IMG/VR virus record: IMGVR_UViG_3300034374_009254
Location: 1-64,000 of that record
Strand: one strand, 5' to 3'
DNA length: 64,000 nucleotides
Source: a virus
Each line of letters starts with the position of its first letter. Within the stretch, counting starts at the first letter, position 1. The position numbers were made by a program, and so were the translations under genes. This document shows positions 2,879 through 16,155 of the stretch, one piece after another. The notes under the pieces were generated by a model. That model saw only the letters and a list, made by a program, of their open reading frames with translations, did not search any database and was not told where the DNA came from.

Positions 2879-2919
2879 TTGACTTTATTTTTCAATCAGT
2901 GTATAATATATGCTGATTG
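2879..2919 (+). promoter_or_regulatory. Promoter P1 with inverted repeat around the -10
   Basis: TTGACT (2879-2884), 17-base spacer, TATAAT (2902-2907) followed by ATATG. CAATCAG (2893-2899) and CTGATTG (2913-2919) form a 7-bp inverted repeat whose loop contains the -10. The right arm falls at the expected transcription start and touches the GGAGG ribosome-binding site (2918-2922) of the next gene. Confidence 0.88.
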
Positions 2920-5106: not shown

Positions 5107-5151
5107 TTGACTTTCATCTTCAATAGAAGTATAATATGTGTATTGAAGATG
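5107..5151 (+). promoter_or_regulatory. Promoter P2 with 11-bp inverted repeat around the -10
   Basis: TTGACT (5107-5112), 17-base spacer, TATAAT (5130-5135). CATCTTCAATA (5115-5125) pairs perfectly with TATTGAAGATG (5141-5151), leaving a 15-base loop that holds the -10. Transcription should start near 5142, inside the right arm. No T-tract follows, so this is not a terminator. Confidence 0.88.
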
Positions 5152-5160
5152 AGGGAACCA

Positions 5161-5616
5161 ATGGGCGACCGATTTTATTTATCACAACTAGCCGCGACAG
5201 GATCGTGTCCTGGCGCAAAACTTACACAACTTAGAAGGAAACGCAAAATGGCATGGGACGACGATAAGAAGGCACAGGCTGTATCTATGTATGAAGCAGC
5301 TGACCCTACTCCCGAAACGTCAATGGAAATTGTTAAAGACATTGCAGACGAACTGGAAGAATCTCCCAACGGTGTTCGTATGATTCTTACTAAAGCTGGT
5401 GTCTATGTAAAGAAGAGCCCCGCTTCTGGTGGCAGCAAACCAGCCTCGAATGGTGGTAGCGGGGGCCGAGTTTCAAAAGCTGCTGCTCAAGACGCGCTTA
5501 TTGCTGCAATTAGTGATGCTGGGCAAGAAGTAGACGAAGATGTTATTTCAAAACTAACTGGTAAAGCTGCTCAATACTTTACTACTGTTTTGAACGCAGT
5601 TAACGCAGCAAGTTAA
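5161..5616 (+). CDS. D5-like small HTH DNA-binding protein
   Basis: 151 residues from ATG 5161 (GAGG 6 bases upstream), or 122 from ATG 5248 (AGAAGGAAA upstream). I prefer 5161 because the extension, with GDRFYLSQL, a CPG and a basic run, resembles the N-terminus of relatives I remember. The core MEIVKDIADELEESPNGVRM followed by ILTKAGVYVKK is an HTH-like unit also seen four times in the protein at 8115. A Gly/Ser linker joins it to a C-terminal helical part (ALIAAISDAGQEVDEDVISK). Likely an abundant early DNA-binding or transcription-modulating protein, as T5 D5 is; specificity unknown. It is the sole gene between P2 and a strong terminator. Confidence 0.72.
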   Translation: MGDRFYLSQLAATGSCPGAKLTQLRRKRKMAWDDDKKAQAVSMYEAADPTPETSMEIVKDIADELEESPNGVRMILTKAGVYVKKSPASGGSKPASNGGSGGRVSKAAAQDALIAAISDAGQEVDEDVISKLTGKAAQYFTTVLNAVNAAS

Positions 5617-5631
5617 TTAATTTTTAATTAG

Positions 5632-5658
5632 CCTCCGAAACTTTGTTTCGGGGGTTTT
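5632..5658 (+). terminator. Rho-independent terminator after the D5-like gene
   Basis: A 9-bp stem CCTCCGAAA/TTTCGGGGG (one G-T pair), 5-base loop, followed by TTTT. Strong intrinsic terminator. Confidence 0.88.
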
Positions 5659-6304: not shown

Positions 6305-6333
6305 TTGACTTTTCTTTCTCTTTTCTGTATAAT
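6305..6333 (+). promoter_or_regulatory. Promoter P3 driving the ligase N-terminal gene
   Basis: TTGACT (6305-6310), 17-base spacer, TATAAT (6328-6333) followed by ATATG. The -35 begins 4 bases after the previous stop codon. No clear inverted repeat around this one. GAGTGAGGA (6343-6351) provides the ribosome-binding site of the next gene. Confidence 0.88.
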
Positions 6334-6357
6334 ATATGTTCTGAGTGAGGATAGTAA

Positions 6358-7305
6358 ATGAAAGATTTTATTGAAAAAGCAGCGTGTGCTTATTACTCTG
6401 GGTATCCTATTATTTCGGATGAAGAGTTTGACGCGATTGTTGCAAAGTACAACTACAATGCTGTTGGTCATCAGGTTACTGATGGTGTTCCGCATATGTT
6501 TCGTATGTACTCACTTCAAAAAGTTTTTAGCTTAGATGACATTCCTACTCCCAACTCAAAGTACATTCGTACTCCGAAGTTGGATGGCGCTGCTGTCTCT
6601 TTACTTTATGTAAATGGGCACTTCGCACTCGGATTGACACGAGGAGACGGTAATCTTGGCCGAGATATTACCCTCAAACTAGAAGAGCTGGTTCCTGTTA
6701 GTATCCCCATGAAGGGAGAAGTACAGATTACTGGCGAAGTAGTTTGTCCCTCGTCTGTCCCCAATGCTCGTAACGTCGCCTCGGGGTCGCTAAACCTCAA
6801 AGATATTCATGAATTTCGGGCAAGAGCCCGGGATTTAGTCTTTGTTGCTTACGACATGCAGTTTGAAAAAGACTACTCAAACTACATTGATGCTATGAAT
6901 GCATTGGCCCATGAAGGCTTTAATGTTGTTACTACCTTCGACCACTCTAACTATCCTACGGATGGTTGGGTGTACCGTATTAATGACCAGAAGTCTTTTC
7001 AAAAAATGGGATATACAGCTCATCACCCTCGCGGCGCTTTTGCTCTTAAAGAGCAGAAAGAGGGTGTACATACAGAATTGCTCGATGTTGTGTGGCAAGT
7101 TGGTAAATCAGGTGTAGTCAGCCCAGTTGCCATTCTTGATCCGGTCGAAGTGGAAGGTGCTCTCGTGAGCAGGGCAACTCTACACAACATTGAGTACATT
7201 CGCTCCCTAGAACTAGAAATAGGATGCACTGTCGAAGTAATTCGGAGTGGAGAAATTATACCTCGAATTTTAGGACGGGTAGACCTTCCAAAAAATAGTT
7301 CTTGA
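6358..7305 (+). CDS. ligA: NAD-dependent DNA ligase, N-terminal part (adenylation and OB domains)
   Basis: 315 residues covering domain Ia (YYSGYPIISDEEFDAIVAKY), the nucleotidyltransferase domain and the OB fold of bacterial-type LigA. The adenylated lysine is Lys74 in KLDGAAV; downstream are TRGDGNLGRDIT and ITGEVV, and ARNVASGSL motifs. The OB part ends GCTVEVIRSGEIIPRILG. The enzyme joins nicks using NAD+ to form ligase-AMP. The zinc finger, HhH and BRCT domains are absent here and are encoded by the next gene, a split also found in T5. It has its own promoter (P3). The -35 of the next promoter overlaps its last codons. Confidence 0.93.
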   Translation: MKDFIEKAACAYYSGYPIISDEEFDAIVAKYNYNAVGHQVTDGVPHMFRMYSLQKVFSLDDIPTPNSKYIRTPKLDGAAVSLLYVNGHFALGLTRGDGNLGRDITLKLEELVPVSIPMKGEVQITGEVVCPSSVPNARNVASGSLNLKDIHEFRARARDLVFVAYDMQFEKDYSNYIDAMNALAHEGFNVVTTFDHSNYPTDGWVYRINDQKSFQKMGYTAHHPRGAFALKEQKEGVHTELLDVVWQVGKSGVVSPVAILDPVEVEGALVSRATLHNIEYIRSLELEIGCTVEVIRSGEIIPRILGRVDLPKNSS

Positions 7306-7330
7306 CTTTTATCTCATATTTTCGTATAAT
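7302..7330 (+). promoter_or_regulatory. Promoter P4 between the two ligase genes
   Basis: TTGACT (7302-7307), 17-base spacer, TATAAT (7325-7330). TAGTTCT (7296-7302) is complementary to AGAACTA (7348-7354), but the 45-base loop makes this pairing less convincing than at P1 and P2. CGGAGA (7345-7350) lies ahead of the ATG at 7358. Confidence 0.88.
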
Positions 7331-7357
7331 ATATTTAACTTTTTCGGAGAACTAAAA

Positions 7358-8137
7358 ATGTTCATAGAGATTGTGCCCCCTACGGACTGTCCGTCCTGCG
7401 GGTCTGCGCTTCAGTGGATAAATCACATCTTATATTGTAAGAGTGAGTCATGTGAAGCTCAAAAATCAAAGAAAATTGAACATTTTGCAAAAACTCTGAA
7501 GATTAAGGGCTTAGGCCCTGCCGCTATCGAGAAACTAGAGGTTGAAGATTTTGACGAAATATATTCTATCTCTTTAGAGTATATTTGCGATCGTCTAGGA
7601 GATAAATTGGGTACTAAACTGTACAAAGAAATAAAAAACTCGGCTTCTGCCCCTCTTGATATGGTACTCCCTGCTTTTGGTATTCCCCTAATCGGAAAAA
7701 CGGCAACGAAGAAGCTGTCTGAGACTATTAAATCTATTACTGAAATTACACCAGACACTTGTACGCGTGCCGGATTGGGCCCAAAAGCTACCGAGAGCCT
7801 ATGCAATTGGCTAGATAGACACTTTTATTGCTTTTATGACGGTGCGCTACCGTTTGATATGAAGTTCAAAGAAAGTAGTCCTGGCCTTAAAGTTGCAGGC
7901 GTTGTTTGCATTAGTGGACGTTTGAAGAGTTTCAAAACTAAAGCTGATGCAACTGAAGCATTGTCAGAAGCAGGTTTTATAGTAAAACCTAATTTGACTA
8001 AAGATGTGACAATTCTTGTGAACGAAAGTGGTATTGAATCGTCAAAAACTAAACAAGCCAGCCAGTCTGGTATAACTATCATTACAGATTTACAATCTTT
8101 TTTGGAGAAAAAATATGGCACTTCCCAAGTGGACTGA
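7358..8137 (+). CDS. ligB: NAD-dependent DNA ligase, C-terminal part (Zn finger, HhH, BRCT)
   Basis: 259 residues. A four-Cys zinc finger (Cys11, Cys14, Cys27, Cys32) is followed by helix-hairpin-helix repeats (LKIKGLGPAAIEKLEVEDF, FGIPLIGKTATKKLSE, RAGLGPKATESL). A BRCT domain covers about residues 185-255 (VAGVVCISGRLKSFKTKADA). These are the DNA-clamping and product-release modules missing from the gene at 6358, so the two products most likely work as a heterodimeric ligase. The separate promoter between the halves means the subunits can be made in unequal amounts. It overlaps the next gene by 23 bases. Confidence 0.9.
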   Translation: MFIEIVPPTDCPSCGSALQWINHILYCKSESCEAQKSKKIEHFAKTLKIKGLGPAAIEKLEVEDFDEIYSISLEYICDRLGDKLGTKLYKEIKNSASAPLDMVLPAFGIPLIGKTATKKLSETIKSITEITPDTCTRAGLGPKATESLCNWLDRHFYCFYDGALPFDMKFKESSPGLKVAGVVCISGRLKSFKTKADATEALSEAGFIVKPNLTKDVTILVNESGIESSKTKQASQSGITIITDLQSFLEKKYGTSQVD

Positions 8138-8840
8138 TGAGCGTACTGCAGAACTCACCTCTTTTGTAGGTAATGAGTCTCCAGTATCTCAAGAAACTGT
8201 AGCAGAAGCTGCGGACCGTCTCGAAACTTCGACTCGTTCTGTATCTTCTAAGCTGCGTAAAATGGGCTTTGAAGTAGAGCTGGCATCTGCCCGCGCTTCC
8301 AAGTCTTTCACTGAAGCTCAAGAATCAACTCTCGTTGCTTTCTTGGAGTCAAACAGTGGTGAGTATACTTATGCTCAAATCGCTGACCATTTTGAAAATG
8401 GCGCGTTCTCTGCCAAGCAACTGCAAGGCAAAATTCTTTCTATGGAGCTTACCGCTCATGTCAAGCCTGCTCCCAAGGTGGAGTCAGTTAAGACTTACTC
8501 AGATGCCGAAGAAGCAACTTTTGTTTCTATGGTAAATGATGGCAAGTTCGTAGAAGAGATCGCTGAAGCTCTCGGCCGTTCTGTTAACAGCATTCGTGGT
8601 AAGGCTTTGAGCCTTCTTCGTTCTGGTGACATTGACGCTATTCCGCGTCAAGAGACTACTAAGGGTTCTGCGAAAGCTGATCCTTTTGAAGACTTGGGCG
8701 ACATCTCTGCCATGACGGTAGAGGCCATTGCCGAAGCTATTGGCAAAACTGCTCGCGGTGTTAAGACTATGCTGACTCGTCGTGGTTTGGCTGCTGCCGA
8801 CTATGACGGTGCTGCAAAAGCTGCAAAAGCCGCAGAGTAA
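8115..8840 (+). CDS. D5-like DNA-binding protein with repeated HTH units
   Basis: 241 residues made of about four related units. Examples are AEAADRLETSTRSVSSKLRKMGFEV (in part), an ESNSGEYTYAQIADHFENGAF unit, VEEIAEALGRSVNSIRGKAL and VEAIAEAIGKTARGVKTML. Each looks like a SANT/HTH-type helical triplet ending in a basic recognition helix. The opening MALPKWTDERTAEL resembles T5 D5, an abundant early DNA-binding protein implicated in control of replication and late transcription. The C-terminal tail is Ala/Lys-rich. The ATG follows TTGGAGAAAAAAT and overlaps ligB. It ends the operon at a strong terminator. Confidence 0.75.
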   Translation: MALPKWTDERTAELTSFVGNESPVSQETVAEAADRLETSTRSVSSKLRKMGFEVELASARASKSFTEAQESTLVAFLESNSGEYTYAQIADHFENGAFSAKQLQGKILSMELTAHVKPAPKVESVKTYSDAEEATFVSMVNDGKFVEEIAEALGRSVNSIRGKALSLLRSGDIDAIPRQETTKGSAKADPFEDLGDISAMTVEAIAEAIGKTARGVKTMLTRRGLAAADYDGAAKAAKAAE

Positions 8841-8857
8841 AACCTATTTATAGGTGA

Positions 8858-8886
8858 GCTGGCTTTCTTAGGAAGGCCAGCTTTTT
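8858..8886 (+). terminator. Rho-independent terminator after the D5-like gene
   Basis: A 9-bp stem GCTGGCTTT/AAGGCCAGC (one T-G pair), 6-base loop, then TTTTT. It closes the ligB/D5-like operon. No promoter is visible between it and the helicase start at 8909, so the helicase depends on read-through or on an unseen promoter. Confidence 0.88.
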
Positions 8887-8908
8887 CGTGTTCGTTGGGG
8901 AGATATAG

Positions 8909-10270: not shown

Positions 10271-10299
10271 TTGACACTCCCGCTGAATTGTAGTATAAT
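10271..10299 (+). promoter_or_regulatory. Promoter P5, full-consensus -35, nested in a terminator hairpin
   Basis: TTGACA (10271-10276), 17-base spacer, TATAAT (10294-10299): both hexamers are perfect sigma-70 consensus. The left arm of the terminator hairpin described next overlaps its spacer. Confidence 0.92.
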
Positions 10300-15718: not shown

Positions 15719-15747
15719 TTGACTTTTACCTCAGATTTTAGTATAAT
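15719..15747 (+). promoter_or_regulatory. Promoter P6, -10 box abutting a start codon
   Basis: TTGACT (15719-15724), 17-base spacer, TATAAT (15742-15747), directly followed by ATG at 15748. The predicted RNA start (about 15754) would lie inside the next reading frame. Confidence 0.88.
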
Positions 15748-16155
15748 ATGTTATTGTTCGATTGGAAAAAAATATATAATACCGCAGCGGGAGATCCTAC
15801 TGACATAGTAAGGATCCTTAGAATGTTGGTTGAAAAAAGAATACCAAAGAACAAATATGAAAAAGAGTATTTTTACTCACAAATGAATTTTGACGGTACA
15901 AGTTTTTTAGTACATCCTGAAAGACTGTTATATAATGGATATAAATTTACTTTTCGAGAAATGGCTGTATATACAGGTATTGCTGCTCTTAGGCCTCTTC
16001 CTGATTTCTATGCTTCTCATAAAATAACTTTAGATTTATTACATTTACCGGCAGAAACACTACCACACATATATGAAAATAGGCTACTGGAGATAGAAAA
16101 TGGACAAGTTCATTTTTTATACGAAAGAAGTCCCTCAAAACAGGAGATACATTAA
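15748..16155 (+). CDS. Conserved phage protein (135 aa) preceding SSB
   Basis: The opening MLLFDWKKIYNTAAGDPTDI with VRILRMLVEKRIPKN, and the core DGTSFLVHPERLLYNGYKF, match uncharacterised proteins I recall from other large marine phages, so the ATG at 15748 is probably the true protein start. That start is immediately after the -10 box of P6, so P6 RNA would not contain it. Either translation uses read-through RNA from the helicase gene, or a later start is used. No ribosome-binding site is visible. It is mixed helical, with no known domain. Stop and next start overlap (TAATG). Confidence 0.65.
   Translation: MLLFDWKKIYNTAAGDPTDIVRILRMLVEKRIPKNKYEKEYFYSQMNFDGTSFLVHPERLLYNGYKFTFREMAVYTGIAALRPLPDFYASHKITLDLLHLPAETLPHIYENRLLEIENGQVHFLYERSPSKQEIH

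What the first reader, a model, noticed from the sequence alone, without database searches (positions are those of the whole stretch)
5107..5151. Promoter -10 box held in the loop of a perfect 11-bp inverted repeat
CATCTTCAATA (5115-5125) and TATTGAAGATG (5141-5151) flank the TATAAT of promoter P2. Related dyads with different sequences frame the -10 of P1, P5 and P7. Because arm sequences differ while geometry is kept, a common operator is unlikely. Three readings fit: (a) RNA reading through from upstream folds a hairpin that hides or insulates the next gene, while RNA started at the promoter lacks the left arm; (b) a DNA cruciform helps melt the -10; (c) separate dimeric regulators. I know of no described phage promoter class of this form.
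Basis: partly seen in the sequence, partly recalled or inferred. Interest (0 to 1): 0.75.

Follow-up and report, generated by a model that had tools for sequence, protein, structure and literature searches.

The report
Promoter inside a ribosome-site-hiding RNA hairpin
In a marine T5-like phage, several neighbouring early-gene promoters sit inside an RNA hairpin that would hide the gene's ribosome-binding site in RNA running through from upstream but not in RNA started at that promoter, so each gene would be translated mainly from its own promoter; the trick is known from phage T4 late genes, but not, as far as I could find, used repeatedly in this way.

Summary
The dyad is real: 12 bp perfect (5114-5125 / 5141-5152), one pair longer than reported, around the -10 of a consensus sigma70-type promoter (P2) of a D3-like early gene in a 101-kb T5-like phage. 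Neither a common operator nor a cruciform fits well. RNA from upstream hides the site (opening cost 9.7 kcal/mol); RNA started at P2 begins at the right arm and does not (3.8). In relatives, arms covary at P1 and P5 (14.8 of about 17 phylogenetically independent changes matched, none opposed); G-U is tolerated and A-C avoided, pointing to RNA on the sense strand. Own spacers hide the site better than swapped spacers at P1, P2, P3 and P5, but not at P4 (ligB), an internal negative control. P5's hairpin is also an intrinsic terminator with the promoter in its loop. P2's own close clade shows no significant covariation. P6 and P7 do not belong. The design is known from T4 e, soc, 49 and I-TevI; four T5 promoters tested here show it weakly at most. 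No experimental data.

The parts
5107..5112 (+). P2 -35 hexamer TTGACT; its last two bases belong to the extended left arm
5111..5125 (+). P2 left arm, extended: CTTTCATCTTCAATA (perfect core 5114-5125); anti-Shine-Dalgarno strand present only in read-through RNA
5130..5135 (+). P2 -10 hexamer TATAAT, in the loop
5141..5155 (+). P2 right arm, extended: TATTGAAGATGAGGG (perfect core 5141-5152); begins at about the predicted +1 (5142) and ends with the Shine-Dalgarno TGAGGG 5150-5155
   Evidence: +1 inferred from -10 spacing
5161..5616 (+). gene expressed from P2: D3-like DNA-binding protein (phrog_1725)
2893..2899 (+). P1 left arm CAATCAG
2902..2907 (+). P1 -10 hexamer
2913..2919 (+). P1 right arm CTGATTG, abutting SD GGAGG of the gene at 2928
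10276..10283 (+). P5 left arm ACTCCCGC
10294..10299 (+). P5 -10 hexamer, in the terminator loop
10312..10324 (+). P5 right arm GCGGGAGT (contains SD GGGAG) running into a run of six T: intrinsic-terminator form
6312..6350 (+). P3 (LigA gene 6358): imperfect stem between promoter spacer and TGAGGA; SD opening 4.8-6.5 versus 0.9 kcal/mol
7302..7357 (+). P4 (LigB gene 7358): same promoter class, no hairpin; internal negative control

Best explanation
The dyad encodes an RNA hairpin that exists only in RNA reading through from upstream. Its 5' strand is written in the promoter's -35/-10 spacer (with the end of the -35), its 3' strand covers the leader and Shine-Dalgarno site of the gene that the promoter drives. 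Read-through RNA therefore folds with the ribosome-binding site hidden and the gene is poorly translated. RNA started at the promoter begins at or just before the right arm, lacks the left arm and is translated freely. The gene's output is thus tied to its own promoter. At P5 the same hairpin, followed by a run of U, should also terminate incoming transcription. Shown: the sequences, covariation (P1, P5), calculated hiding of the SD. Inferred: start of transcription, existence of read-through RNA, effect on translation, termination at P5.
For: Matched spacer/leader duplexes beat swapped ones: all 235 representatives z = -10; P1 p 2e-4, P3 p 0.001, P5 p 2e-4, P2 p 0.05, P4 p 0.97. SD-opening cost in read-through RNA is higher with the own spacer than with swapped spacers at P1 (5.8 v 4.4, p 0.006), P2 (4.0 v 3.0, p 0.002), P3 (5.9 v 5.2, p 0.04), P5 (9.3 v 4.7, p 6e-4), not at P4 (3.0 v 3.4, p 1), and far higher than in promoter-started RNA. 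Window: P2 9.7 v 3.8, P1 5.1-6.6 v 1.7, P3 4.8-6.5 v 0.9, P5 12 v 1.9, P4 2.6-2.9 v 6.5. Compensatory changes: P5 18 cells, P1 11 cells, none of 500 shuffles as high; on gene trees about 14.8 independent arm changes go together, none opposed. G-U 37 and A-C 1 in these stems against 57.6 and 21 expected if columns were independent: selection on the sense RNA strand.
Against: P2's own close clade shows no covariation beyond shuffles (81% of cells paired, 329/500 shuffles as high), and many relatives lack a strong P2 stem. Unassigned promoters of the class show duplex excess but no SD-opening effect (p 0.39). The predicted link with co-directional upstream genes could not be tested (only 7 promoters without one). 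A likely terminator after the D3 gene (about 5628-5655) would reduce read-through towards P3. Host, +1 sites and read-through are not measured.
Confidence: 0.77

Rival explanations
1. The hairpins mainly end or protect the 3' end of the upstream gene's RNA (terminator or exonuclease block), and hiding the SD is a by-product of compact gene spacing.
For: P5 has a GC-rich 8-bp covarying stem followed by T5-6. The hairpins lie just after upstream stop codons.
Against: P1, P2 and P3 have no T run after the stem. The stems reach into or abut the SD in each family, and own spacers specifically raise SD-opening cost.
Confidence: 0.12
2. DNA-level element: cruciform extrusion helping or hindering melting of the -10.
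For: The -10 lies in the loop at P1, P2 and P5.
Against: A-C mismatches are avoided while G-U is tolerated on the sense strand only; a DNA cruciform would treat them alike. P4, an equally good promoter, has no dyad. Right arms track the SD.
Confidence: 0.03
3. Operators for dimeric repressors, one per promoter.
For: Perfect symmetry at P2; the P2 gene product is a putative DNA-binding protein, so autoregulation is conceivable there.
Against: Arms differ completely between promoters and between relatives at the same promoter. The sense-strand G-U/A-C bias does not follow from protein binding. The loop length varies.
Confidence: 0.05
4. For P2 alone the 12-bp dyad is mostly chance or lineage accident, while P1 and P5 carry the real selected hairpins.
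For: No significant covariation in the P2 clade; P2 family duplex test only p 0.05.
Against: SD-opening swap test positive for P2 (p 0.002); strongest duplex of all -10-like sites in the genome; another P2 clade uses different complementary arms TTTTGAA/TTCAAAA.
Confidence: 0.15

Closest known systems
T4 gene e (lysozyme), soc, 49 and I-TevI/I-TevII/I-TevIII translational hairpins (PMC3014915, PMC2988022)
   Same: Promoter immediately upstream of, and within, an RBS-sequestering hairpin; upstream-started RNA is silenced, promoter-started RNA lacks the 5' strand and is translated; conserved as a stem in related phages.
   Different: In T4 the embedded promoters are late promoters (TATAAATA) on scattered late or intron genes and the purpose is timing. 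Here they are sigma70-type -35/-10 promoters of replication genes, at four of six successive promoters of one early region, with the 5' strand written in the -35/-10 spacer. Timing is unknown. No homology is claimed.
IS200 (and, from memory, IS10 and IS50) protection against impinging transcripts
   Same: Stem-loops in read-through RNA terminate it and/or occlude the transposase RBS (IS200: PMC3196728).
   Different: A single transposon gene protected from outside promoters; here consecutive genes of a phage's own operon.
T5 early promoters (N25, N26, ligA, ligB, P31)
   Same: Same gene order: a promoter before D2, D3, ligA and ligB.
   Different: Of four T5 promoters tested, N25, K28a and the T5.100 promoter show no extra hiding of the SD; only PligA shows a modest effect (4.2 v 0.1 kcal/mol). 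T5 P31B has a bulged spacer/leader stem.
N4-type vRNAP hairpin promoters
   Same: A hairpin at a phage promoter (from memory).
   Different: N4 promoters are small single-stranded DNA hairpins with tiny loops, bound by a phage polymerase; here ordinary sigma70-type boxes and loops of 11 nt or more.

Membership tests
T4-e-type RBS-sequestering hairpin with embedded promoter | SD or start codon paired in RNA that starts upstream | tested here: met
   (calculated, not measured)
T4-e-type RBS-sequestering hairpin with embedded promoter | promoter placed so that its RNA lacks the 5' strand of the stem | tested here: met
   left arm lies between -35 and -10, upstream of any plausible +1; +1 itself not mapped
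T4-e-type RBS-sequestering hairpin with embedded promoter | stem maintained by compensatory change in relatives | tested here: met
   P1 and P5. Not met for P2's close clade:
T4-e-type RBS-sequestering hairpin with embedded promoter | translation from upstream RNA reduced in infected cells | not testable with these tools
   needs reporters or ribosome profiling
T4-e-type RBS-sequestering hairpin with embedded promoter | embedded promoter is of a later temporal class than the read-through RNA | not testable with these tools
   all six promoters have the same sigma70-type boxes, which argues against a class difference
Intrinsic terminator (P5) | GC-rich stem directly followed by a T run | tested here: met
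   termination not measured
Common operator | the same binding sequence at each promoter | tested here: not met
Described Rfam family | covariance-model match at gathering score | tested here: not met
   none in 1-24500

The most novel reading that the evidence does not exclude
A whole early operon of a large marine T5-like phage clade is built of self-insulated promoters: each promoter's -35/-10 spacer doubles as the anti-ribosome-site strand for its own gene, so tandem genes can be densely packed yet each is translated only from its own transcript, except where co-translation is wanted (ligB after ligA); at P5 terminator, promoter and translational lock are one element.
Probability: 0.4. Interest if true: 0.7.

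Novelty: new variant of a known kind. Interest (0 to 1): 0.56.

Why it matters
It would show that phages use promoter spacers, usually taken as filler, as a second code that blocks translation of read-through RNA, giving independent control of tandem genes in a dense genome. It offers a simple design rule (promoter in the loop of an anti-RBS hairpin or terminator) for insulated expression units, and a cheap comparative test (spacer/leader covariation) for other phages.

Tried and rejected
Common operator: arms share no sequence across promoters or relatives. Cruciform: contradicted by G-U/A-C asymmetry. First crude G-U/A-C count over all promoters was confounded by T-rich spacers and G-rich leaders (shuffled control 70:44), so it was repeated with within-family swaps (ratio 4.6 v 2.0 for helices of 7 or more) and on anchored stems. 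Context test (co-directional v divergent upstream) had too few divergent cases. P7 dyad: chance level. T5 itself: little sign at four promoters tested. Rfam: nothing. No near relative in the phage collection at DNA level. Literature searches for promoters in terminator loops or T5-like cases found no description, but the library lacks most subscription journals.

Full report
WHAT IS THERE. The window is the first 64 kb of a 101,258-bp virus record. Gene content and order are T5-like: D3-like DNA-binding protein, split NAD ligase, D5-like regulator, DnaB-type helicase, primase, polymerase, SbcC-like D13, RNR. No record in the phage collection is near at DNA level. Six plus-strand promoters with TTGACT/TTGACA, 17-bp spacer and TATAATAT lie at 2879 (P1), 5107 (P2), 6305 (P3), 7302 (P4), 10271 (P5) and 15719 (P6). 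The matching T5 genes D2, D3, ligA and ligB also have their own promoters.

THE OBSERVATION. The P2 dyad is exact and 12 bp long (5114-5125 / 5141-5152). Long perfect repeats alone are not rare enough to impress in 64 kb (2 seen, 0-2 per shuffle), but none of 911 other -10-like sites in the genome has arms as strong as P2; P1 and P5 are at percentiles 0.010 and 0.002, P3 at 0.054, P4 and P6 at background. P7 (54627, minus) is background.

ANATOMY. The promoter spacer holds the left arm. The right arm starts about where transcription should start and ends in the Shine-Dalgarno site. With G-U pairs the P2 stem extends to 15 pairs, CTTTCATCTTCAATA with TATTGAAGATGAGGG, swallowing the SD. P1: CAATCAG/CTGATTG, then GGAGG. 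P5: ACTCCCGC/GCGGGAGT with the SD inside, followed by six T: an intrinsic-terminator form whose loop holds the -10.

RELATIVES. IMG/VR contigs were fetched with the P2, P5 and P1 proteins and with the promoter pattern, giving 581 distinct promoters, sorted by downstream gene. At P5, arms read ACTCCCGC/GCGGGAGT, ACTCCCGT/ACGGGAGT, ACTCCTGC/GCAGGAGT, ACTCCCAT/ATGGGAGT, AATCCCTGTG/CACAGGGATT, nearly all followed by T5-6. At P1: CAATCAG/CTGATTG, AGTTAGT/ACTAACT, CTAGTAGA/TCTACTAG, AAATTTAG/CTAAATTT. At P2: TCATCTTCAATA/TATTGAAGATGA, ATCTTCAATACA/TGTATTGAAGAT and, in another clade, TTTTGAA/TTCAAAA; many relatives have little.

TESTS. (1) Matched against swapped arms: strong for P1, P3, P5, borderline for P2, absent for P4. 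(2) Structure-anchored counts: compensatory cells exceed all 500 shuffles at P5 and P1 and collapse when the register is slid; P2's close clade is not significant. (3) Phylogeny: on trees built from the downstream genes, about 14.8 independent arm changes match, none opposes, about 2.3 are one-sided (summed over six pairs, so partly dependent). (4) Strand: A-C cells 1 against 21 expected, G-U 37 against 57.6, supported by within-family swaps. Only RNA of the sense strand makes this distinction. (5) Function in silico: opening the SD costs more with the own spacer than with a swapped one for P1, P2, P3 and P5, not P4; promoter-started RNA is open. In the window P2 and P5 have the most hidden SDs among genes with a credible SD and start codon.

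MECHANISM. Read-through RNA carries both strands and hides the ribosome site; promoter-started RNA lacks the left strand. The logic is that of T4 gene e and I-TevI and of IS200's protection from outside transcription. What differs is use at several successive sigma70-type promoters of one early region, with the promoter spacer as the hiding strand, and the fusion with a terminator at P5. P4, which drives ligB directly behind ligA, lacks the device; one reading is that ligB may be translated from ligA RNA as well, which would suit a two-subunit enzyme (inference).

LIMITS. No RNA data; +1 sites inferred; E. coli-type anti-SD assumed; host unknown. Context dependence could not be tested.

Noticed in passing
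15742-15760 (P6) and relatives L091, L093, L111, L148, L156, L189 and others: At P6 the -10 TATAAT is followed after 0-2 nt by the ATG (or GTG/TTG) of the next gene (phrog_4258) in 16 of 17 promoters found for this gene. RNA started at the usual distance would lack this start codon; the gene may be translated only from read-through RNA, or starts elsewhere. Unexplained.
   Followed up: partly
93190-93440 of the full record (L007:9190-9440): Three minus-strand promoters about 85-100 bp apart, each in a repeat with GCAATTGTGCAAAAAGTAC-TTGACA, facing a plus-strand promoter at 93434; little coding room, possibly a promoter array or small RNA genes.
   Followed up: no
90564 and 92663 of the full record (L007): Two promoters share a leader motif GGGGATTGGCCC shortly after the -10.
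   Followed up: no
5161-5247: The D3-like proteins of this clade have an N-terminal extension MGDRFYLSQLAATGSCPGAKL, conserved in marine relatives (matches from residue 1) but outside the match to T5-group D3 (from residue 24).
   Followed up: no
8115-8840: D5-like regulator (phrog_323) with a match to sigma-70 region 4 (PF08281) above the curated cut-off.
   Followed up: no
5628-5655 and 8856-8892: Probable intrinsic terminators after the D3 gene (CCTCCGAAAC..GTTTCGGGGG-TTTT) and before the helicase gene.
   Followed up: no
P5 relatives (A3): 12 arm haplotypes need at least 16 changes on the gene tree, suggesting that promoter segments recombine apart from the genes they drive.
   Followed up: no
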